The notes below the pieces were generated by a model that worked only from the letters and a program-made list of their open reading frames with translations, did not search any database and had not been told where the DNA came from. Made by a program: the position numbers and the translations under genes. From positions 62,001 through 126,000 of the forward strand of contig NZ_JAJGBK010000022.1 of NCBI RefSeq assembly GCF_020696975.1: a stretch of 64,000 nucleotides of DNA. The letters are read 5' to 3'. Shown one piece after another: positions 33,915-44,831 of this stretch; the stretch's first letter is position 1, and the number at the start of each line of letters is the position of its first letter. This DNA comes from Methanoculleus sp. (GTDB taxonomy: Archaea > Halobacteriota > Methanomicrobia > Methanomicrobiales > Methanoculleaceae).

Positions 33915-33988
33915 GGGCTCGTGGTCTAGCTGGTTATGACGTCGCCTTCACACGGCGGAGGTCTCGAGTTCGAATCTCGACGAGCCCA
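33915..33988 (+). tRNA. tRNA-Val (anticodon CAC), integration site
   Basis: A 74-nt cloverleaf two bases after tRNA-Gly. The acceptor is GGGCTCG/CGAGCCC with discriminator A. The anticodon loop TTCACAC gives CAC. The T arm is TCGAGTTCGAATCTCGA. No CCA is encoded. Its 3' part (from 33936) is repeated exactly at 44778-44831, so this tRNA gene served as the attachment site of the element that follows; the copy here remains a full, probably functional tRNA. Confidence 0.95.
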
Positions 33989-34189
33989 TTTTACTTCGTT
34001 CTTTTCGGAAATTAAGACCAATTTTTGGTGCGTTACCTTTCGAAGTTCGAATACCGCTTTATCGAGTAAGCGGGACGCATTAACGCCGATTTTCTTCAAA
34101 TACTCGTAGTTCTCAGGATCTATTGTGAGATTCAACGGTTTTCTAACTCGCCGCACATCGCTTATTTTATGTTTTTCTCCTTTATTCAT
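33926..34189 (-). CDS. Small ribbon-helix-helix-like protein reading into the tRNA gene
   Basis: About 87 residues from the ATG at 34189; an upstream ATG at 34213 is possible. The central part, KPLNLTIDPENYEYLKKIG followed by VNASRLLDKAVFEL, has the strand-helix-helix pattern of MetJ/Arc-type proteins and of small archaeal antitoxin-like regulators. The C-terminal ~18 residues (WARRDSNSRPPPCEGDVITS) are encoded by the tRNA-Val gene itself in antisense; such a tail is usual for genes abutting a tRNA attachment site. It may regulate excision or plasmid copy number of the element. The tail sequence carries no functional signal beyond this. Confidence 0.6.
   Translation of the reverse strand: MNKGEKHKISDVRRVRKPLNLTIDPENYEYLKKIGVNASRLLDKAVFELRKVTHQKLVLISEKNEVKWARRDSNSRPPPCEGDVITS
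33936..33989 (+). repeat. attL: left copy of 54-bp direct repeat
   Basis: It covers the tRNA-Val from the end of the D-arm through the discriminator base plus one T. It is identical to 44778-44831 (starts ATGACGTCGCC, ends GACGAGCCCAT). The base before it differs (T versus C), marking the edge of identity. Confidence 0.9.
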
Positions 34190-34499
34190 GCTCTTTTTCT
34201 CCTGTGCGCACATATACACGGATATGCGCACACATTCAGGGATCCTAACTCTCTTCGTAGTGGGTCTTAAAGGGGTGGCAACCAAAAACGGGGGCGTTTG
34301 AGAGGGGCGCCGCGAAGTTTCGGACGGCCAAAAGTGTGCGGACACTTTCACATCCCCCGCTCAACAGTTAATACCTTTTGAAGCACATTGATTCAAATCG
34401 ATAATTATTTGAAGCGCATACGAAACAAATGATGATAAATACCATTATGTGAGAGGTTGCACCGTTTGAACTTCGGCGCAGAATTGGTAAGGGTGCTAT
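34190..34499. other. A/T-rich intergenic region at the left end of the element
   Basis: No gene is seen. It is A/T-rich from about 34365 with TATA-like stretches (AAATACCATTATG) and should contain divergent promoters for the RHH-like gene and the 351-aa gene. The composition change from the tRNA side is sharp. Confidence 0.4.
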
Positions 34500-35555
34500 A
34501 TGGACAAAATTGCGAAAGATATCAATGTCTACATCAAGTCCCTTGACAAAGCACACCCAAAAATCTCTGTTAATATTCTTGTAAGCAATATCCAAGCAAT
34601 TCAGAACTTGATGTATCTTATCGGGGATTATCTTGAAGGACATAAGGCCCGGAATGCAGGAGATTACCCAAAATCTGTGAAAGATAACTGTGAACTGGTT
34701 ATTACAGGAGTGAAGCAAGGAAGTTTAGAAATTCAGATGAGGCCGTCTCAGACTCAGCAAGCTCTTCCTATACCAGACCTCGAAGGCACATATGGAGAGC
34801 GGGCAATTAAGATGGCCAATTGTGCTCTAGGCATAGCATCTAGTGAACATCTCGTATATCCTAGAGTGCTTGACCTATTTGGAGGAGATGAGCATCGGGC
34901 ATATCGCTCGCTCCAAGAACTAGAAAGCATTTGGCCAGACGAAGATTCACCGTATCAGATTGAAGTTGGTTTCGGAGAAAAAGAACGTGTTGAACTAAAA
35001 CCCGAAAGAAAACCGATAATTAGAGACGCCTTAGTGAAACCACCAGAACCTTCGGCAAAAACTGTATCCGGTAGACTAGTAGAAATTAGCGTGGAGAGAA
35101 AACGCCAATTTGCTGTAGATACACCAGATGGCCGGTATATCTGCAAATACCCCCGTGAACTTGAAGAATATGTTATAAAAAGAATCAAGAATCTTGTTAG
35201 TGTAAGTGGAGTTCTTGAAGGGAGGAGAAAGGTAATCAATATTGAGAGTGAGATGGCCTTTAAACCCTTAAAGTATCTCCAATTCTCCCAGGTAAAATTC
35301 GACAAAAAGACTGTCAAAGAATTAGCGAAGCCGATAAATCTTGAAGTCGATTTTGACGATGAGGAATATATCCTTTATAATAACGATTTTAACTTGTTGG
35401 TTACAAGTAAGAATTTAAAAGAAGGCATGGATGAGATTAACAGAGAGTTTGTGTTATTATGGTCTGATTACGTCGAAGAAGACATTAACAACCTATCCGA
35501 AGGGGGGATCCAGTTCCGGGAAAAGTTACTGTCACTGTTTAATGGGGCGATTTAA
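34500..35555 (+). CDS. Uncharacterised 351-aa protein paired with a HicA-like gene
   Basis: A 351-residue soluble protein in A/T-rich DNA. The N-terminal ~90 residues (KISVNILVSNIQAIQNLMYLI, ELVITGVKQGSLEIQM) resemble a domain I recall from many bacterial proteins of unknown role. The middle (KTVSGRLVEISVERKRQFAV, TPDGRYICKYPRELEEYV, LVSVSGVLEGRRKVINIES) has the strand pattern of a small OB- or SH3-like barrel. The C-terminal ~90 residues are acidic and helical (FVLLWSDYVEEDINNLSEG). No enzyme motif is visible. Its stop is immediately followed by the start of a HicA-like gene, so both are cotranscribed. A toxin-antitoxin-like or defence function is a guess from this pairing and the element context. 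Confidence 0.75.
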   Translation: MDKIAKDINVYIKSLDKAHPKISVNILVSNIQAIQNLMYLIGDYLEGHKARNAGDYPKSVKDNCELVITGVKQGSLEIQMRPSQTQQALPIPDLEGTYGERAIKMANCALGIASSEHLVYPRVLDLFGGDEHRAYRSLQELESIWPDEDSPYQIEVGFGEKERVELKPERKPIIRDALVKPPEPSAKTVSGRLVEISVERKRQFAVDTPDGRYICKYPRELEEYVIKRIKNLVSVSGVLEGRRKVINIESEMAFKPLKYLQFSQVKFDKKTVKELAKPINLEVDFDDEEYILYNNDFNLLVTSKNLKEGMDEINREFVLLWSDYVEEDINNLSEGGIQFREKLLSLFNGAI

Positions 35556-35837
35556 TTGGCAACGCGAAACAATAAGAAAGTTCTCAAGGCCCTGACTAAA
35601 AAGGGGTTCGAATTGCACAATTCAGACCATATAAAATTAACACTTTATCATAACGGAAAAAAGACCGGGCTAACCACTTGGGTTAGCCATGGAAAGCAGG
35701 ATCTTGGCGACAGAATGATAGGCATTATGGCAGATCAGTTACGGTTAGAACGAAGAGAGTTTCAAGACCTGGTTGACTGCCATATATCCGCAAGTGGTTT
35801 AATACAATTATATCACGAAAAGGGAGTCGTTATCTAA
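35556..35837 (+). CDS. HicA-like (YcfA-fold) small protein
   Basis: A 93-residue protein. It has the order of the HicA dsRBD-like fold: KVLKALTKKGFELHNSDHIKLTLYHNGKKT (helix, then the Ser-Asp-His-Ile-Lys strand), a TWVSHG segment with a His, then GIMADQLRLERREFQDLVDC. In HicA toxins a His in the first strand is catalytic, and the SDH here could serve. The C-terminal extension (HISASGLIQLYHEKG) is not part of the minimal toxin. The start is a TTG directly after the TAA of the gene before; no other start fits. No HicB homologue is present, so the 351-aa neighbour may be its partner. Confidence 0.65.
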   Translation: MATRNNKKVLKALTKKGFELHNSDHIKLTLYHNGKKTGLTTWVSHGKQDLGDRMIGIMADQLRLERREFQDLVDCHISASGLIQLYHEKGVVI

Positions 35838-35880
35838 ATATTTCCGATCCCTGATACCACCTATTTTCCCTTACTTCTCT

Positions 35881-36138
35881 TCACGGAAAACCCGGGAGAA
35901 GCTCGCAGTCCGCCACCCCTGCGGCCACTACCTCTTCCACACACTCCTTTATCTCGAATGTTGTGTAGCGCAGAGTCACTTCCGCGACCTGAGATACGGC
36001 ACCCCACGCCGGAGCATCCCGGCAACAGTGCGCTTTTATGTCGTAGACGAACTGCCCGTCCGAGTGGATACCAGTGACGTCCGCATATTTGAGGGGGTAG
36101 GTCGAGAGTTCCTCCGTAGAATCAGCGCATGTCTTCAT
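35881..36138 (-). CDS. Hypothetical 85-aa protein
   Basis: An 85-residue frame from the ATG at 36138. It contains five cysteines (KTC, HCC, KEC, DCE), and the sequence FVYDIKAHCCRDAPAWGAVSQVAEVTLRYTTFEIKE has the look of a real folded protein. There is no strong ribosome site and no family I recognise. It lies between the HicA-like gene and the hairpin tract, converging with the former. It could be a genuine small gene or a fragment of a longer one. Confidence 0.4.
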   Translation of the reverse strand: MKTCADSTEELSTYPLKYADVTGIHSDGQFVYDIKAHCCRDAPAWGAVSQVAEVTLRYTTFEIKECVEEVVAAGVADCELLPGFP

Positions 36139-36149
36139 GACGCGCAATC

Positions 36150-36400
36150 TGGAGGAGCATTCTCCCTTTTTCTCTGGAGAAGAGAACTGAATTCTTCTCT
36201 TTTTCTCTTTGTGCTATGGAGAATTCTCCATAGTTCTCCTGGAGAAGAGAGTTCTCGTCTCCTATTTCTCCCAGGAGAAGCGGACATATAATCTCTTTTT
36301 CGCCGTTTTTCCTCCGGAAAAACCGATGGAGAAAACCTGGAGAAAAACAGGAGAAGACTGGAGAGAATGCAGGAGACATAGGAGAATCACCGTCAGACTA
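36150..36400. repeat. Hairpin-dense tract of GGAGAA/TTCTCC repeats
   Basis: About 250 bases containing more than ten copies of GGAGAA or its complement TTCTCC, many placed as inverted pairs. The clearest is CTATGGAGAATTCTCCATAG at 36214-36233, a perfect 20-bp palindrome, directly followed by TTCTCC-T-GGAGAA (36234-36246). 36300-36390 then has six or more copies in one orientation. It sits between the 85-aa gene and the 3' end of hsdS. A GGAGAA-rich stretch also lies at 45959-46065, beyond the right end of the element. The function is unknown: iterons, protein-binding array or structured RNA. Confidence 0.7.
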
Positions 36401-37727
36401 GCGTGGACTGAGTCCCTCTTCTCCCCGTCTTCTCCTTCTTCTCAGAGTGGATACGCTCAAGCAGGACCGATGCCGGCTCATACTCGCGCCCCTCCCGCCG
36501 GGCGAGTCCCGCCTCGGTGGGGACCAGCCGGCCGGAGAATGCCTGGGCGAGGATGGATTGCCGCATCGTCTCGGTCTTTGCGCGTGCCGCGGCGACTTCG
36601 GCCTCGATCCGGTCGGTGAGGGCGAGGAGGGCCTCGACACGGCGGACGATCTCGTTCTGTTCGGGGAGGGGAGGGAGAGATAACTGCATCTCACTGATTA
36701 TTTTCTTATTTAAAGCGGGTTGCTCCCCACCTCTACCTGCCTTACGATGGTCTTCGTATTTTGATAACGACCAGTACCAAAGAAAATCGGAAGTAATCTT
36801 CTGGATATCTGGAACTATTCCAGCAACATTTTGATTTGTACATGCCTCGATTTCGAGATAAGCAGACTGCCCTCGCGTTTTTCCCTCTCCAATCATGGCG
36901 ATGAGAATAGTGCCCTTTGGGTATATTTTGGCGTTTGAATTTTCTAAACCCAGTTCAGTAATATGTTCTCTTGTGGAGTGTATGTGGTTATTCGCAACCT
37001 CCCCCGATGAAACCCACGGTATTGTACCATTCCAAAACTGAGGCTTCTTCCTTGAAGGGGTACCGCCAACTTTGACTTGAGCAATATCAACTACCTTACA
37101 CTCCAACCAATCTTGTGGACTCCCTGCCCGCCAATCCTCCGTCAGCCGCCCATCACACGCGGCGGCGAGCACCGCCTGCCGGAACTGCTTGAGGATGCCC
37201 GGCACGCGCTCAAGTCGGGCGTTCGCGGCGTCCAGCCGTGCAAACAGCGCCTCGATGGCGGCGACGATGCGGTGCTGTTCGGCGAGAGGGGGGAGGAGCA
37301 ACTCAATACTCTCCAAATGACCTTTGTTTATTGCTGTAAAGGTTGAGCCCGTCCCCCACAACGCTATTTCCGGTTCCTTATACCTCAGGTTATATAGAAT
37401 GTAGTTTGTGGGTACCCCCGCCAAAGGGGTAAGTCCTGCCAAACCCCTCCCTATCGTGCAGACCCGATCGGCCACATTTGTTGGTCCAACTGGGGCACGG
37501 ACGGAAATTAGAATAGCACCTGGTTTCACGATCTTTTTGGGCTCGGTACAGTATACTCGTATAGTTGGATGATAGTCTGTAAAGTCAGCCTTCCCTTGAA
37601 AAAAAGGAAGACCTATTCCCTCCTCATTGTAAGAACTACCAGGCGGAGATTGCCCCATGCAAATATCAGCAACTTGGGGTAAAGTCACCCATTCCCACCC
37701 CTCCGGCACCTCACTCCTCTCTGGCAT
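36393..37727 (-). CDS. hsdS: Type I restriction-modification specificity subunit
   Basis: A 444-residue protein with two target-recognition domains (about 10-150 and 215-370), each followed by a conserved coiled coil: LLPPLAEQHRIVAAIEALFARLD near 155 and LSLPPLPEQNEIVRRVEALLALTD near 350. The end ILAQAFSGRLVPTEAG is family-typical. Both halves are intact, so the subunit should recognise a bipartite DNA site. The recognition-domain parts are more A/T-rich than the conserved parts, the usual sign of TRD exchange. The 5' end overlaps hsdM by 17 bases. The last codons run into the GGAGAA tract. Confidence 0.93.
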   Translation of the reverse strand: MPERSEVPEGWEWVTLPQVADICMGQSPPGSSYNEEGIGLPFFQGKADFTDYHPTIRVYCTEPKKIVKPGAILISVRAPVGPTNVADRVCTIGRGLAGLTPLAGVPTNYILYNLRYKEPEIALWGTGSTFTAINKGHLESIELLLPPLAEQHRIVAAIEALFARLDAANARLERVPGILKQFRQAVLAAACDGRLTEDWRAGSPQDWLECKVVDIAQVKVGGTPSRKKPQFWNGTIPWVSSGEVANNHIHSTREHITELGLENSNAKIYPKGTILIAMIGEGKTRGQSAYLEIEACTNQNVAGIVPDIQKITSDFLWYWSLSKYEDHRKAGRGGEQPALNKKIISEMQLSLPPLPEQNEIVRRVEALLALTDRIEAEVAAARAKTETMRQSILAQAFSGRLVPTEAGLARREGREYEPASVLLERIHSEKKEKTGRRGTQSTLV

Positions 37728-39135
37728 ATCCGTTCCCCATCATCTCAAGGATCGCATTCAGCTCCTCCACCGCGGCCTCAAGTTCGTTGATGGCTTCGGC
37801 GGCCAGTTCCTCCGGGGCGGGCAGATCGTCGCCGTCCGAGAGCGACTCGTCCCGCAGCCACTTCAGCGAGTCGATCTTGTAGTCCTGCTCCTTGAGTTCG
37901 GTGATGTGGAACGATCGCCAGCGGTCTTCCGCCGAGTCCTCGGGGCGGCGCGGGGACCTCCCGTTCGGATCCTCGCCGTAGCAGCGCTCGAACTCCGCAA
38001 AGTGCTCCTTCGTGAGGGGGCGGTCCTTCTTCGTGATCCCCGGCACGTTCGTCCGTCCGTCGTAGACCCAGGTGTGATCGGTCGGAATGCCCTTCGTGAA
38101 GAAGATCACGTTCGTCTTCGTCCCCGGCGAGTAGGGGGTGAACGTCCCGTCCGGCAACCGGAGGACCGTATGGAGGTCGCAGTCCTCGCAGAGCACCTTG
38201 AAGATCTCTCCGGCCTGGTCCGCGAAGAGGACGTTGTCCGGCACCACGACCGCCGCACGGCCGCCGGGCTTTAAGATCGTCATCACATGCTGGATGAAGT
38301 TGAGCTGCTTGTTGCTCGTCTCGATCACGAAGTCTTCCCGGTGCGGGGACTGATTCGCGCCTTTGGTGCCGAAAGGAGGATTGGTGAGCACCACATCGAA
38401 CCGCCGGAAGTCGGGCACCTCGTAGATCGAGTCGCCCAGCCGGATCTCCGGCTCGATACCGTGCAGGTAGAGGTTCATCAGCGCCAGCCGCCGCGGGCGC
38501 TCAACCAGTTCCTGCCCGAAGTAGGTGCCTTTCCTGATGCGCCGCGCAAGGTCACGGTCAAGCGCCCCGCCGCCGGTCTGGACTTTCAGCCACTCATAGG
38601 CGCAGACCAGGAACCCACCTGTCCCACACGCGGGATCGGTGATGGTGAACTCGCGAGCCCTGCGGGGATCGGGCTTCATGCACCGCACGATCGTCTGGAT
38701 GAGGATACGCGGGGTGAAGTACTGCCCGGCACCCTTCTTCCCCTCGCTCGCGGCCTTCTCGAGCAGCCCTTCAAACGCGGCAGCCTTCACGTCGACATCG
38801 AGCCCGGTCCACTCGGTCTCGTCGATCACGCCGATCAGTTTCTTGAGGTTCACCGGGTTGTGGAAACGCGAGAGCGCACCGGCGAAGATGTCGCCGAGCA
38901 GCCCATCGGCCTTGCCGAGGGTGCGGAGGAGATCGGCATAGTGCTCGGTGAGGTCGGTCCCGGACTGCTCTTTCAGTGAGGTCCAATCACAGCCCTCCGG
39001 GAGGTCGACGCCGCGCTCGTCGGCCATCTTGAGAAAGAGCAGATAGGTGATCTGTTCGATGTAGTCACCATAGTCGATCCCTTCGTGCCTCAGCGTATGG
39101 CAGAATCCCCAGAGTTTTTGTACGACGTCACTCAT
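37711..39135 (-). CDS. hsdM: Type I restriction-modification methyltransferase subunit
   Basis: A 474-residue N6-adenine methyltransferase. An HsdM N-terminal helical domain (KLWGFCHTLRHEGIDYGDYIEQITYLLFLKMADE) is followed by the AdoMet motif I ITDPACGTGGFLV and catalytic motif IV VLTNPPFGTKG. The length fits the family. It modifies the recognition site selected by HsdS. Its start overlaps the hsdR stop (ATGA), so all three subunits are translated from one message. Confidence 0.95.
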   Translation of the reverse strand: MSDVVQKLWGFCHTLRHEGIDYGDYIEQITYLLFLKMADERGVDLPEGCDWTSLKEQSGTDLTEHYADLLRTLGKADGLLGDIFAGALSRFHNPVNLKKLIGVIDETEWTGLDVDVKAAAFEGLLEKAASEGKKGAGQYFTPRILIQTIVRCMKPDPRRAREFTITDPACGTGGFLVCAYEWLKVQTGGGALDRDLARRIRKGTYFGQELVERPRRLALMNLYLHGIEPEIRLGDSIYEVPDFRRFDVVLTNPPFGTKGANQSPHREDFVIETSNKQLNFIQHVMTILKPGGRAAVVVPDNVLFADQAGEIFKVLCEDCDLHTVLRLPDGTFTPYSPGTKTNVIFFTKGIPTDHTWVYDGRTNVPGITKKDRPLTKEHFAEFERCYGEDPNGRSPRRPEDSAEDRWRSFHITELKEQDYKIDSLKWLRDESLSDGDDLPAPEELAAEAINELEAAVEELNAILEMMGNGYAREE

Positions 39136-41804
39136 GCCGCAATTGCCTCATTCAATTCCTGAAGTAGTCTTGAGAGCCGGTTTCCAAAAACGCGGTTTGC
39201 CCGTCCCCAGCCGCCATGATCAGCAAAGACGGGGATGATCTCAAAATCTTCCTCATTTATTGAGAGGTTCTGGATTAAATGGGCACGGATGCGATCCAGC
39301 CACGCGGTCTGCTCTGCGGTGAAGGTTTTTCCGTCCAGTATCGTTGCAAACGCCCGATCAATCCGCTCTTCCGCGGTGAGCAGTTCCTCGTCCTCGCGGG
39401 CGGCGTGCTTCACCATCGAGATGATGTCAACGAGCGCCTTCTGGTAATGCACCTGGTGCGCCCGCTGCAGGTTCTCGACGGTGAACCGCTGCGGTGTCGC
39501 CGTGAGTTTCTGCTTCAGTTCGGCAAGCGCATCTGTACTCCACTCCTGCGGGCGGTCGAGGAGGATCTGGATGGCCTCGATCTTATCGGGGTTCTCCTGG
39601 ACGAACCGGGCAAAGAGGGTGAGATAGTCTGCCGGTTTGTACTCGTGCCCGGCCGAATCGCGCACCACCCAGGTCGATGTCACCTCGTCCTGCGTGTGGT
39701 AGTCGATGAGGAACGTCCGGGGAGGCCGGGGATAGTTCACCAGGAGGTTCTGGAAGTCGGGGTCCCGGAGGATCTCCATCGTCCCGGTGAAATCCTCTTC
39801 CAGCCGCCGTTGCAGGGAGACGGCAAACTGCTTGAGATCCCCTCTATCGACGAACTTCCGGAAGAGGTCACGCGCCTCCCCCGACATCTCTTTGTCAATC
39901 CGGTTCAGGTGCTTGACGAGCACGCGGATGTTGTAGGCGCGATCCCGGTTGTTCCAGATATCATCGATGATCTTCGCGATCGGCTTTGCCTCACGTTGCG
40001 GTGGTTCGGCCGTGATGCCGGTTGCCTGCCGGAAGTACTCGATCAGCGTCCCGCCGAAGCAGTCAAAGACAGTAAAGTGCGATTTGTCCGGGTAGTGCTC
40101 CCCTTTGCGCGTGCCTCTTCCCATCATCTGCTCAAAGAGGATACGGGACTTCACCGGCCGGAGAAAGACGATGTATTCGAGGTCGGGGATATCCACTCCG
40201 GTCGAGAGGAGATCGACGCTAACGACGACCCCCGGCAGTTTCCGGTTCCGGAACTCCCGGATTCTCTGCAGGGGGCGATCGACCTTGCCGGTGATCTTCT
40301 GGACGAACGCATCTCCCCGCCCGAAGACCTCGCGGGCGGCATCGACGAGTTGATCTGCATGGGAGATGTGCGGGATGTCCTGGACGGCGAAGATCAGGGT
40401 CTTCGGGAAGCGGCCATACTGCCGCTCGTGCTCGTCGGCATAGCGCTTGATCTCTTCAAGGATCTTATGGTTGGAGTCAATGGACGTGATACTCCGCTCG
40501 ATCTGCTCTGAAGAGTACTCACGCTCGTCTTCGAGGATATCAAGCGTCTTCTCTCCGGTTTCCGGGTCGACAACATCGACGGCCTCCCCCTCTTTCAGGA
40601 AGATCCCCTGCATCCAGACACCTGACTCGATAGTGACGAGATCGTAATCGACCAGATAGCCTTCCCGGACAGCCCGCTCGTAGGGATACTCGTACACCTT
40701 GTGCCTGAAGTAGGCCATCGTATGCGCGGCAGGCGTCGCGGTGAGCCCGATCTTTATCGCATCGAAGTGATCGAGCGTGTTGCGCCAGATCGACATCTCC
40801 TGCGCGGTATACCCGCGGTGGCACTCGTCGGCGATAATGAGGTCGAAGGCGTGGATCGGGATATCCATCTTCTCGGCGTCTTCCTCCACTTCCTCCGTGC
40901 AGGGGAAGGCGGCAGCCTTGCCGAAGAGGTTGATGGTCATCCGCTGGATGGTTGAGACGTACACGAAGGCGTGGCCGGGCCGGGGGTCGGTGAGGTAGGT
41001 GTTCGGCAGCACCGTGACATCAAAGGGGTCATCGTCGTCGAGGTCTCCACGCTGGAACTGCTGGCTGTAGACCTCGTAGGTCTTATCGAACTTCAATCCC
41101 TGCTCGGTGTCAAACGAAGCGAATGCGCGCACCGCCTGCGCCGCGAGAGCCCGCCGGTCGACGAGGAAGAGGACGCGCTTTGCCGCACCGGCTTTCATCA
41201 GGCGGTAGATGAGGTTGACCATCGTGAATGTCTTCCCCGTCCCGGTCGCCATCGCAACCAGCATCTCCCGCTGCCGTTGTGCGATCGCATTTCCGATAGC
41301 GTTGCAGGCTTCGCGCTGATAGGGACGCATCCGGGGATTATCGGGGACCGTGAAGAACTGCGAGCATTCCCGATCGAGATCGGCCTGCAAGCGGTCCAGC
41401 AGGGCATCCGGTGAATGGAAGGCGGCGATCTCCCGCGAACGGTTCAGGGGATGCCGTGCATCGTGATACCAGATCACCTCACCGTTGGTTGCGTAGAGGA
41501 ACGGGACACGGATGCCATCGAAGTTGAACGGAGTATCGGTGATCCCGCGGGCATACCGCTCGGCCTGCACAAGAACACTCTGCGGCCCCAGCGAGACTTT
41601 TTTCGCCTCGATGATGCCGAGGATTGCTCCGTTGACATAGAGGGCGTAATCGGCAGGGCCGTTCTCGGTCGGATACTCCTCGATGGAACACCGATCGTAT
41701 GCACTGAGCGAGCGTCCTTCTCTGTAGGGAACGACATCCCAGCCGGCCGCCCGTAATTTAGGATCGATCCTCGATTTACGGGTCAGATATTCGTTTTCAC
41801 TCAT
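39132..41804 (-). CDS. hsdR: Type I restriction endonuclease subunit R
   Basis: An 890-residue protein from the ATG at 41804; a TTG 30 bases upstream is less likely. The N-terminal nuclease domain has the PD-(D/E)xK core (ADYALYVNGAILGIIEAKK). Two RecA-like helicase domains follow: Walker A MATGTGKTFT, motif II IADECHRGY, motif III GLTATPAA, motif VI QMMGRGTRKG. A C-terminal HsdM-binding region ends the protein. All key residues appear intact, so the system should be active. The order R-M-S, with R first on the minus strand, is common in archaea. Confidence 0.95.
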   Translation of the reverse strand: MSENEYLTRKSRIDPKLRAAGWDVVPYREGRSLSAYDRCSIEEYPTENGPADYALYVNGAILGIIEAKKVSLGPQSVLVQAERYARGITDTPFNFDGIRVPFLYATNGEVIWYHDARHPLNRSREIAAFHSPDALLDRLQADLDRECSQFFTVPDNPRMRPYQREACNAIGNAIAQRQREMLVAMATGTGKTFTMVNLIYRLMKAGAAKRVLFLVDRRALAAQAVRAFASFDTEQGLKFDKTYEVYSQQFQRGDLDDDDPFDVTVLPNTYLTDPRPGHAFVYVSTIQRMTINLFGKAAAFPCTEEVEEDAEKMDIPIHAFDLIIADECHRGYTAQEMSIWRNTLDHFDAIKIGLTATPAAHTMAYFRHKVYEYPYERAVREGYLVDYDLVTIESGVWMQGIFLKEGEAVDVVDPETGEKTLDILEDEREYSSEQIERSITSIDSNHKILEEIKRYADEHERQYGRFPKTLIFAVQDIPHISHADQLVDAAREVFGRGDAFVQKITGKVDRPLQRIREFRNRKLPGVVVSVDLLSTGVDIPDLEYIVFLRPVKSRILFEQMMGRGTRKGEHYPDKSHFTVFDCFGGTLIEYFRQATGITAEPPQREAKPIAKIIDDIWNNRDRAYNIRVLVKHLNRIDKEMSGEARDLFRKFVDRGDLKQFAVSLQRRLEEDFTGTMEILRDPDFQNLLVNYPRPPRTFLIDYHTQDEVTSTWVVRDSAGHEYKPADYLTLFARFVQENPDKIEAIQILLDRPQEWSTDALAELKQKLTATPQRFTVENLQRAHQVHYQKALVDIISMVKHAAREDEELLTAEERIDRAFATILDGKTFTAEQTAWLDRIRAHLIQNLSINEEDFEIIPVFADHGGWGRANRVFGNRLSRLLQELNEAIAA

Positions 41805-42055
41805 CGATGAGGCACGCAGAGGGTGGTAATCCAATAAAATGCTAATCCGTTTTATCTTGCAGTCTTATTTATCGATAGATTAACTTTTTGATATCTATTT
41901 CTAATATGCACGACTAAAATCAACCCATATCCAAGTTTAAAAGAGACGATTGCTTCAGATTGCTCACCTGCAGTTCTGCAATGCCTAACAACAAGATCAA
42001 ATACCAAATTTCGACTGAAGTAAACCAGGCAATCATCGTTGCTAACTTCTAATAT

Positions 42056-43120
42056 TTACTGCATATCCACGCTAAAAACAGGATTAGTTGTTAAAATACT
42101 TTCAAATTGACTTAAAAGGTATTGAGATATATTCCAATCAATACAGTGGGGACAGCAAGTCACGATGAATTGGCTAGAACGAGTGCTACACCCGATGGAG
42201 GTCTGACAAAATTTTACATCTAGTTTTTTAAAGCAGTTCCCAAAGATTAAATGAGGCCATTTGGATAACAGATTAGGATTATAATTAATAAGAGAGAGTG
42301 CCATCACCCGTAATTTGAAGTTTTCAGGATCATATTTGAATCTGAATTGCATCCGATCTACCTCATAGACCTCTGGATCATACCAAGAAAACCTATTTAA
42401 GATCAGGTCTGGCTCCAAGATATTAACTGAAAAAGCCTTTTTTGAATTTATCAATAGTTTATCCTCTTTGATATCAAATTCCCCTGGGTAAATGGATGGG
42501 ATAGCAGATTGGACATCGTGTATTATATCAGATTCCACGGATTTTATGTCATATATCTTATATGGGTGCTCTCCATCGATTGGCTCCATCCTACTATGAT
42601 AAACACAAAATAACCGTTTATGCTCTTCCCGATAATCTTCCGAACTGGTTACCAACTTTAGAGAGTTGAATTGAATTAAAGGAAAATTCTCAACTAATTT
42701 ATTCAATCCATCTTGTTTCGCCAAGTATGCGTAAACTTTAGAAATCTTTATTTCAGGCCGGAATTCATTGAGGGTAGAGAGAGTAATATCTACTTCCTTA
42801 CCCTCACCTATCGCATCAGTAACTAAGACATTCTCTTTCTCGGGATCATTTTCAGAGTAACAATTAATACGGATAGTTTTAGAATTATAGAGCAGTTTAA
42901 TTGAATTTAAACCACTCACGTTTCTTGAGGGGTCAAAATATGGGCGAAACAAATTAAAGCCTTTTCTTTCTAAGACGTACACATTTGGATGTTGCGGTGT
43001 AATTTCCGCGAGAACAAATTCTTCCAACTGATTTTCGATACGATGAGCAATATCAACAGGATGTGCATCGAGGGATTTTAAAAACTCTGATTCGATATTG
43101 ATCGCCGGAAGATCAGACAT
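42056..43120 (-). CDS. Phosphoribosyltransferase-like protein with C-terminal Cys cluster
   Basis: A 354-residue protein in strongly A/T-rich DNA. Residues 98-110 (VLVTDAIGEGKEV) match the shape of the PRPP-binding loop of type I phosphoribosyltransferases (four hydrophobics, an acidic residue, then a Gly-rich turn), with Gly-Glu-Gly-Lys instead of the usual Thr-Thr/Gly-Gly-Thr. The preceding strand (SIKLLYNS) and following strand (ISKVYAYLA) fit such a core. The C-terminal half is unlike any enzyme I know and ends in cysteines at 296, 305, 311, 322, 323 and 326 (CQTSIGC, TCCPHC), a likely metal site. It is divergent from the wHTH-HD gene pair. Possible roles are nucleotide metabolism or a defence effector; both are inference. 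Confidence 0.55.
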   Translation of the reverse strand: MSDLPAINIESEFLKSLDAHPVDIAHRIENQLEEFVLAEITPQHPNVYVLERKGFNLFRPYFDPSRNVSGLNSIKLLYNSKTIRINCYSENDPEKENVLVTDAIGEGKEVDITLSTLNEFRPEIKISKVYAYLAKQDGLNKLVENFPLIQFNSLKLVTSSEDYREEHKRLFCVYHSRMEPIDGEHPYKIYDIKSVESDIIHDVQSAIPSIYPGEFDIKEDKLLINSKKAFSVNILEPDLILNRFSWYDPEVYEVDRMQFRFKYDPENFKLRVMALSLINYNPNLLSKWPHLIFGNCFKKLDVKFCQTSIGCSTRSSQFIVTCCPHCIDWNISQYLLSQFESILTTNPVFSVDMQ

Positions 43121-43341
43121 TCTAGAATTACCCCAAGAATTATCGCAGAAGTATCAATTCGACAACATTTAAACCTCTTGATTCTATATAATATGTCAAC
43201 TTTAGGACACAATACCCAAAAGATAAATATGATACAAATAAACTGATATAGACTCCCAAAAAATGAGAGTTATGATCAAACAAAAAGAATTATATAAATC
43301 TACGTCGAAGTCAGCATATCTGAAGCCTGGAGGAGGACGTT
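43121..43341. promoter_or_regulatory. Divergent A/T-rich promoter region between PRTase-like and wHTH genes
   Basis: About 220 A/T-rich bases between two divergent genes, with TATA-like stretches (TTCTATATAATATG near 43183 and AAAGAATTATATAAATC near 43280). GGAGGACG precedes the ATG at 43342. A winged-helix protein is the first product to the right, so this is the natural place for its operator. Confidence 0.5.
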
Positions 43342-43659
43342 ATGGGTGCAGAGGTAAAAGGTTCGGAGGTAAAAAGTCCTCTATCAAGTGAGTTCAAAGT
43401 GGCAACGGAGATCTATCATTGCCAGAACAACAACGAAGTTATATGGTACGGAAAATTAGTTGATAGACTAGCCGGACAAGTCAGTAAGAACACGATATCA
43501 AATGCTATAGATACCCTATTTGACTGGGGCATTATAAAAGCAGAATACGGAGAGACAGAAAATGGCAGAGCAGGCAGACTCTTAATGATAAGCAACGAGG
43601 CAAAACCCTTAGTTAAAGAATTATACGAGAAATATTGGAAACCGATAAACTACCCCTAA
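43342..43659 (+). CDS. Winged-helix DNA-binding protein
   Basis: A 105-residue protein with a strong ribosome site (GGAGGA). Residues ~17-95 form a winged helix: FKVATEIYHCQ, VIWYGKLVDRLAGQVSKNTISNAIDTLFDWGIIKAEYG (recognition helix SKNTISNAIDTLFDWG), then the wing NGRAGRLLMISNEA. It belongs broadly to the archaeal ArsR/PadR-like single-domain regulators. The HD-domain gene begins 19 bases after its stop, so the two are cotranscribed. It probably controls the module through the divergent promoter at 43121-43341. Confidence 0.75.
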   Translation: MGAEVKGSEVKSPLSSEFKVATEIYHCQNNNEVIWYGKLVDRLAGQVSKNTISNAIDTLFDWGIIKAEYGETENGRAGRLLMISNEAKPLVKELYEKYWKPINYP

Positions 43660-43678
43660 CACGGCGATTCAGACCAAT

Positions 43679-44437
43679 ATGTTTCCCTATGATCCAATAT
43701 ATACTGGGATCTCAGATATCCAATCCGATTCGCTCAAGATGGTCGCGATATATGCAGAACAATTTTTAAGATTTATGCCACGAAACATCCAAAATTTTCC
43801 ATCACACGGGTTGGATCACTCAATAAACATCATTAAACTGATAAACGAATTTACGGGAAATTGGAACCTCTCAGTAACAGAAGACGAGAAATATATACTA
43901 TATTTATCTGCATGGCTCCACGATATTGGGTGTATTTGCGATAGAGAACATCATAACGAAGTATCGTATCAAATATTGCTTCAAGATGAGAGTACATGTA
44001 ATATAATCAATAACGTTAGTGCTAACGCACTATACAATCTAAAATTTACCATCAACTCTCATTCTTCATCCTACGATATTGAAGAAGTCCCTAAAAATTT
44101 AAATGGTGTCCGTCTGCAGTTGATTTGTGCAATTTTTAGAATACTTGATGCTTGTGAGATTAGTTGCACCAAATGTCCGAAAGCAGTGTTTGACTTAATT
44201 GGCCCCACATTAAAAGAGGATCCAACAGCTTACTCATTTTGGGATGGGCATATGAAAATACAGTTAGTAACATATAAAGAACCGGATATTATAATACTAA
44301 CAAGAGGATCTAATGAGAATACTGAAAAGATCATAAATAGGCTAAAAAAAGAAATTGATTCGGTAAAATCAATATTTCAAGAAAATGGAGTGTGTATCCC
44401 ACAGATAAGTGTAATAGATCACTCGCTCCATCAATAG
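43679..44437 (+). CDS. HD-domain phosphohydrolase-like protein
   Basis: A 252-residue protein. The HD signature residues are visible: His47 in HGLDHSINII, the His81-Asp82 doublet in SAWLHDIGC, downstream His91/His92 that may be accessory ligands, and Asp157 in FRILDACEIS. This is the H...HD...D metal site of nucleotide and phosphodiester hydrolases. The C-terminal ~85 residues (HMKIQLVTYKEPDIIILTRG; INRLKKEIDSVKSIF) may be a sensing domain. It is cotranscribed with the winged-helix protein and divergent from the PRTase-like gene, which hints at a shared nucleotide substrate. dNTP hydrolysis is one option; nothing in the sequence proves it. Confidence 0.78.
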   Translation: MFPYDPIYTGISDIQSDSLKMVAIYAEQFLRFMPRNIQNFPSHGLDHSINIIKLINEFTGNWNLSVTEDEKYILYLSAWLHDIGCICDREHHNEVSYQILLQDESTCNIINNVSANALYNLKFTINSHSSSYDIEEVPKNLNGVRLQLICAIFRILDACEISCTKCPKAVFDLIGPTLKEDPTAYSFWDGHMKIQLVTYKEPDIIILTRGSNENTEKIINRLKKEIDSVKSIFQENGVCIPQISVIDHSLHQ

Positions 44438-44777
44438 TTTCTAGAATATGCTGATATCGCTGGATATTAGGTCGATCATAATACTCTCAGCTCGTTGCTC
44501 CATACCTCGACCATCAAAATTTTGGCAATGCTGTTCTCTGCATCTTTACAAAGTTACGATTAATAGCTGAGATGTAATCCTTTATTAGTAGGTTATAGAG
44601 CAATCCACATTTGGAGCAGCGAATCAACTGATATTAAAACCAATCCCTATGTGACCTATAGAACCCAATAAAGGCGGGGTATCACCATAACTTGTTAACC
44701 TATTCTCACTCTCCCGCAAGGTTCTTGAAAAATCATCGGAGCGCGTTTGGGGGCCGAAACCGGAAACGGGCCGCGTC
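44438..44777. other. A/T-rich right end of the element, no gene seen
   Basis: About 340 bases without a supportable gene between the HD gene and attR. The composition changes to GC-rich near 44735, just before the repeat. Confidence 0.4.
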
Positions 44778-44831
44778 ATGACGTCGCCTTCACACGGCGG
44801 AGGTCTCGAGTTCGAATCTCGACGAGCCCAT
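44778..44831 (+). repeat. attR: right copy of 54-bp direct repeat (tRNA-Val 3' fragment)
   Basis: An exact copy of 33936-33989. It lacks the tRNA 5' half, so it is not a functional tRNA; it marks the original chromosomal 3' end displaced by integration. Confidence 0.9.

What the first reader, a model, noticed from the sequence alone, without database searches (positions are those of the whole stretch)
34500..35837. 351-aa protein coupled to a HicA-like protein without HicB
A HicA-fold protein normally has a HicB antitoxin. Here its only partner is a larger protein with an unfamiliar N-terminal domain and a barrel-like middle, with the two start and stop codons adjacent (TAA-TTG). This suggests a toxin-antitoxin or defence pair with a non-canonical partner.
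Basis: partly seen in the sequence, partly recalled or inferred. Interest (0 to 1): 0.6.

Follow-up and report, generated by a model that had tools for sequence, protein, structure and literature searches.

The report
Class 8 hicBA toxin-antitoxin pair
Two adjacent genes in a methane-producing archaeon look like a toxin (a HicA-type RNA-cutting enzyme) and its antidote; the antidote seemed to be missing but is the tail end of the larger protein, a layout already described in 2024, here carried on a mobile DNA island next to a restriction-modification system.

Summary
The two genes are real: 34500-35555 (351 aa) and 35556-35837 (93 aa, TTG start directly after TAA, same frame). Both evolve under purifying selection (dN/dS 0.13 and 0.14). 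The small protein is a divergent HicA with a conserved histidine. The claim 'without HicB' is most likely wrong. The last ~90 residues of the 351-aa protein form a separate module with a HicB-like beta-beta-beta-alpha topology. In 197 genomes of the phylum, 25 of 30 confident hits to this module lie directly upstream of such a HicA-like gene; two of the five exceptions are at contig ends. Other relatives carry quite different N-termini on the same module, including the DUF7557/VapB-like type. Size, gene order, the LysRS-like OB domain and the two extra C-terminal HicA helices match 'Class 8 hicBA' of Gerdes 2024 (PMC10865869). The HicB fold is supported by topology, context and several weak matches, not by one strong one. 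The pair sits on a 10.8-kb island bounded by a 54-bp repeat of a tRNA-Val gene, absent from a related genome, with a type I restriction-modification system. A relative pair is carried by Methanocaldococcus fervens tailed virus 1. New member of a known kind; toxicity and phage defence are untested.

The parts
34500..35039 (+). hicB N-terminal domain (aa 1-180), mixed alpha/beta, no sequence family
   Evidence: AF2 model mean pLDDT 86; no Pfam, NCBIfam or PADLOC family; fold-level match to uncharacterised phage proteins, one labelled DUF6575
35040..35273 (+). hicB middle domain (aa 181-258), OB fold
   Evidence: Foldseek: lysyl-tRNA synthetase OB domains and ssDNA-binding proteins, probability 1.00; lowest dN/dS of the gene, 0.056
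35274..35552 (+). hicB C-terminal HicB-like antitoxin module (aa 259-351)
   Evidence: beta-beta-beta-alpha topology; separate module recurring with other N-termini directly upstream of HicA-like genes; Pfam PHD_like hits in 13 of 27 members
35556..35837 (+). hicA-like toxin gene, 93 aa, TTG start immediately after the hicB stop codon
35628..35630 (+). codon of His25, candidate catalytic residue, present in 24 of 25 aligned relatives
   Evidence: a catalytic His at the matching motif in characterised HicAs per the review PMC11594946
34360..34499 (+). upstream region with imperfectly conserved inverted repeats, e.g. TTCAAAT-N8-ATTTGAA; operator only a possibility
   Evidence: a repeat this good arises in about 10% of shuffles, so not significant
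33936..33989 (+). att-like copy: 54-bp repeat inside tRNA-Val (33915-33988)
44778..44831 (+). second copy of the 54-bp tRNA-Val repeat, right end of the island
   Evidence: site unoccupied in related genome G096
33929..34180 (-). CcdA-like ribbon-helix-helix gene between tRNA-Val and hicBA, divergent
   Evidence: Pfam CcdA 24.6 bits, cut-off 22.4
36393..41834 (-). type I restriction-modification genes on the same island (hsdS 36393-37727, hsdM 37711-39135, hsdR 39132-41834)
   Evidence: hsdS by Pfam Methylase_S E=2.9e-43; hsdM and hsdR by sequence reading only

Best explanation
This is a type II toxin-antitoxin operon of the hicBA kind, Class 8 of Gerdes 2024. The 93-aa protein is a HicA-type RNase toxin. 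The C-terminal HicB-like domain of the 351-aa protein binds and blocks it, and translational coupling (TAA-TTG) makes antitoxin first. The N-domain plus OB fold occupies the place where relatives carry a DUF7557/VapB-like DNA-binding-type N-terminus, and where Class 5 carries Phd/YefM. It most likely serves dimerisation plus nucleic-acid binding, for autoregulation or for sensing the trigger that frees HicA. The pair is cargo of a tRNA-Val-integrated island with a type I restriction-modification system, so the payoff is probably island stabilisation or anti-phage defence. Shown here: genes, domain layout, conserved pairing, module swap, island and unoccupied site. Inferred: RNase activity, neutralisation, translational coupling, autoregulation, defence.
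For: HicA identity: and predicted fold with two extra C-terminal helices. HicB-like C-domain: topology; Pfam PHD_like hits in 13 of 27; the PHD_like structure 3k6q appears in both the sequence search (E=0.63) and the fold search (probability 0.66); a HicA chain of a solved HicAB complex, 6g26, at probability 0.28 and TMt 0.53. Pairing: 25 of 30 C-domain hits at E<1e-5 directly upstream of a HicA-like hit, 14 in frames of 336-366 aa. A genuine PHD_like antitoxin in G068 also overlaps a HicA-like gene. OB fold. Published class with the same layout. Purifying selection. Island. Viral carriage.
Against: No direct test of toxicity or neutralisation. Sequence link of the C-domain to canonical HicB is weak: hhalign 14% probability, E=0.0019; PHD_like scores stay under the family cut-off. 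All PDB fold matches to the HicB+HicA model have E>0.1. One relative (L003) has Asp in place of the conserved His and another (L034) has a HicA reading frame lacking its N-terminal part, so toxicity may not be kept everywhere. Three relatives of the C-domain away from contig ends have no detected HicA-like neighbour.
Confidence: 0.82

Rival explanations
1. A HicA paired with a truly unrelated antitoxin: the HicB-like look of the C-domain is convergent or illusory, and neutralisation is by the N-domain or barrel.
For: Weak profile match to canonical HicB; no Pfam family over cut-off on the 351-aa protein.
Against: The C-domain is the only part common to all HicA-linked partners, with different N-termini; its beta-beta-beta-alpha topology; PHD_like hits; Class 8 HicB described with the HicB fold at aa 255-342.
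Confidence: 0.06
2. Not a toxin-antitoxin pair but an RNA-binding or RNA-processing complex: HicA-like protein as RNA binder, OB domain as a second RNA or tRNA binder, cellular role unknown.
For: The OB fold resembles LysRS anticodon-binding and ssDNA-binding domains; the His is lost in L003.
Against: Patchy occurrence (4 of 12 sampled genomes of the genus, only 2 with the full-length form), island and viral carriage, His conserved in 24 of 25.
Confidence: 0.08
3. A decayed or solitary remnant carried along by the island.
For: Some relatives have damaged members (L034, L103).
Against: Window copies are intact with dN/dS 0.13 and 0.14 against the nearest relative.
Confidence: 0.04

Closest known systems
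Class 8 hicBA (Gerdes 2024, PMC10865869)
   Same: Gene order hicB-hicA, close linkage; HicB of 331-356 aa with unknown N-domain, LysRS-like middle domain and C-terminal HicB fold; HicA of about 95 aa with two extra C-terminal helices.
Class 5 hicBA (Phd/YefM-HicB + HicA; Pfam PF12910 PHD_like)
   Same: hicBA order, regulatory-type N-terminus and HicB-like C-terminus; remote match of the C-domain to PF12910.
   Different: N-terminus is an unknown domain plus OB fold, not Phd/YefM; scores under the family cut-off.
Canonical archaeal HicAB (PF07927, PF15919)
   Same: HicA fold and conserved His; HicB-like fold by topology.
   Different: HicB profile match very weak; partner four to five times larger; HicA longer.

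Membership tests
Class 8 hicBA | hicB upstream of and closely linked to hicA | tested here: met
   TAA-TTG adjacency; the order recurs
Class 8 hicBA | HicB of 331-356 aa | tested here: met
   351 aa
Class 8 hicBA | Middle domain resembling lysyl-tRNA synthetase | tested here: met
   Foldseek LysRS hits, probability 1.00 over about 90 columns
Class 8 hicBA | N-terminal domain without known similarity | tested here: met
   No family by sequence; only uncharacterised or DUF6575-labelled phage proteins by fold
Class 8 hicBA | C-terminal HicB fold | tested here: inconclusive
   Right topology and several agreeing weak matches; no single significant match
Class 8 hicBA | HicA about 95 aa with alpha-beta-beta-beta-alpha fold plus two C-terminal helices | tested here: met
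   93 aa; predicted H-E-E-E-H-H-H, at low to moderate confidence, pLDDT about 65
HicA toxin family (PF07927) | Profile match over the curated cut-off | tested here: not met
   22.3 bits against a cut-off of 27 for the window protein
HicA toxin family (PF07927) | Homology to canonical HicA at profile level | tested here: met
   hhalign 97.7%, E=2e-12
HicA toxin family (PF07927) | Conserved catalytic histidine | tested here: met
   His25 in 24 of 25; its equivalence to the characterised His is by alignment only
HicA toxin family (PF07927) | RNase toxicity relieved by the partner | not testable with these tools
   needs expression assays
PHD_like antitoxin (PF12910) | Profile match over the curated cut-off | tested here: not met
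   best members 18-20 bits against 27; window protein not listed

The most novel reading that the evidence does not exclude
The N-domain plus OB fold is a trigger sensor: it recognises a nucleic acid made or exposed during infection, possibly sharing ancestry with DUF6575-labelled phage and defence proteins, and frees HicA from the C-terminal antitoxin domain. The HicB-like C-domain would then be a swappable adaptor coupling one HicA lineage to different DNA-binding or sensing heads.
Probability: 0.25. Interest if true: 0.6.

Novelty: new member of a known kind. Interest (0 to 1): 0.3.

Why it matters
It corrects a 'HicA without HicB' reading and supplies an archaeal Class 8 hicBA with a defined mobile context (tRNA-Val island with type I restriction-modification; a related pair in an archaeal tailed virus). 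The module-swap evidence, with the same HicB-like tail and HicA behind DUF7557/VapB-like, Class 8 or other N-termini, gives a concrete clue to the open question of what the large N-terminal part of Class 8 HicB does: it sits where relatives carry DNA-binding-type domains. The DUF7557-HicB with downstream HicA layout is not among the 14 classes listed in PMC10865869 as far as its text and Fig. 2 legend show.

Tried and rejected
NCBIfam and PADLOC gave nothing. Plasmid collection: no match for three full-length queries; five insignificant ones for a fourth. Viral contigs: only a virus contig identical to the MeFTV1 protein; short partial HicA hits not pursued. PDB by sequence: only weak hits. 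Operator inverted repeat: not significant. DUF6575 as a family: nothing rang in 60 genomes or in the 14 controls, so uninformative. Attempts to find Leptospira phage LE1/LE4 by guessed accessions failed; one returned an unrelated Salmonella phage. Pyrrolysine as the reason for in-frame TAG in L006: no MtmB in that genome, left open. A single-chain HicB-HicA model was made by reading the TAA between the genes as Gln; the interface in it is not interpreted, because of the zero-length linker and low confidence.

Full report
What is there. The window (an archaeon; relatives fetched are mostly Methanomicrobiales) holds two intact ORFs, 34500-35555 (351 aa) and 35556-35837 (93 aa, TTG), separated only by the stop codon and in the same frame. 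G+C is about 0.38-0.45 here against about 0.59-0.70 upstream. Against a relative 91% identical in the large protein (L033), dN/dS is 0.13 for the large and 0.14 for the small gene, with the barrel domain lowest at 0.056. Both are therefore real and maintained.

The small protein. Pfam HicA_toxin matches at E=1.4e-4, below the curated cut-off; 16 of 25 relatives match, best 6.3e-8. Profile-profile comparison with canonical archaeal HicA gives 97.7% probability, E=2e-12. His25 is kept in 24 of 25 aligned relatives. The predicted topology is helix, three strands, helix, plus two C-terminal helices, at modest confidence.

The large protein. A model with mean pLDDT 86 shows an N-terminal alpha/beta domain, a barrel at about 185-256, and a C-terminal beta-beta-beta-alpha-alpha unit. 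Foldseek places the barrel with lysyl-tRNA synthetase OB domains and ssDNA-binding proteins (probability 1.00). Against viral predicted structures the best matches are a Leptospira phage LE1 protein and a phage protein labelled DUF6575 (E 9e-10 and 9e-9, over 300 and 271 columns; TM-scores only about 0.35). A DUF6575 protein was among E. coli anti-phage systems found by functional selection (PMC9519451). This is a lead, not a test, because which part of those proteins carries DUF6575 is unknown here.

The C-terminal 90 residues are the missing HicB. Searching the phylum with the large protein returned many hits to its C-terminus alone. Reading those loci showed short proteins with other N-termini, again directly upstream of a HicA-like gene. 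Two of these N-termini match DUF7557 above cut-off. Separate profile searches of the C-domain and of the HicA-like protein in 197 genomes show 25 of 30 C-domain hits at E<1e-5 with a HicA-like hit 2-101 bases downstream on the same strand. Of the five others, two lie at contig ends. Fourteen of the 25 are in open frames of 336-366 aa, eleven in frames of 72-204 aa. By sequence the C-domain is only remotely HicB-like: hhalign 14% against canonical HicB, Pfam PHD_like in 13 of 27 members but under cut-off, and the PHD_like antitoxin structure 3k6q in both sequence and fold searches at low significance. In one genome a clear PHD_like antitoxin overlaps a HicA-like gene, which links that family to HicA. 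The claim rests on the agreement of these lines, not on any one of them.

Comparison with the literature. Gerdes 2024 (PMC10865869) defines Class 8 hicBA: HicB of 331-356 aa with an unknown N-domain (1-171), a LysRS-like middle domain (175-253) and a HicB-fold C-domain (255-342), and HicA of about 95 aa with two extra C-terminal helices. The window pair agrees feature by feature.

Context. A 54-bp perfect repeat of the tRNA-Val 3' part lies at 33936-33989 and 44778-44831. In related genome G096 the two flanks are contiguous, so 33990-44831 is an integrated island. It carries a CcdA-like ribbon-helix-helix gene, hicBA, type I restriction-modification genes, a 354-aa unknown, a small winged-helix-like protein and an HD-CE protein. 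The hicBA of the close relative sits by the same tRNA-Val. A related pair is encoded by Methanocaldococcus fervens tailed virus 1, gp38 and gp37. Canonical HicB proteins are also common in the phylum and present in this genome.

Mechanism. The best reading is a type II toxin-antitoxin operon in which the HicB-like tail neutralises a HicA RNase, and the N-domain plus OB provides dimerisation and nucleic-acid binding for autoregulation or triggering. The position of the N-domain plus OB, where relatives have DNA-binding-type N-termini, supports a regulatory or sensing role but does not prove it. Toxicity, neutralisation and defence were not tested. A relative with Asp for His25 (L003) and one with a damaged hicA (L034) caution that activity may be lost in places.

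Verdict. A new archaeal member of a known, experimentally untested class; interest modest. The open part is the function of the large N-terminal region.

Noticed in passing
window 33936-44831: 10.8-kb island integrated in tRNA-Val between perfect 54-bp repeats; the site is unoccupied in related genome G096. No integrase gene was recognised among the ORFs read.
   Followed up: partly
window 43679-44437 and 43342-43659: HD-CE domain protein (Pfam E=2e-10) next to a small winged-helix-like protein on the same island; possibly another conflict-related system.
   Followed up: no
window 42056-43120: 354-aa protein with no Pfam family on the island, minus strand, in an A+T-rich stretch.
   Followed up: no
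window 33929-34180: CcdA-like ribbon-helix-helix gene overlapping the tRNA-Val end; a similar region follows tRNA-Val in several relatives (L088, L090-L092), so it may belong to the integrating element rather than to hicBA.
   Followed up: partly
L013, L014 (also L105, L106): DUF7557 or VapB-like N-terminus joined to the same HicB-like tail upstream of HicA; this layout is not among the 14 HicA classes as listed in PMC10865869.
   Followed up: partly
L006 (G016): The HicB frame is interrupted by in-frame TAG codons; pyrrolysine or decay not decided (no MtmB found in that genome).
   Followed up: partly
L003, L034: HicA-like gene with Asp at the conserved His position (L003) and one lacking its N-terminal part (L034), both beside intact HicB.
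   Followed up: no
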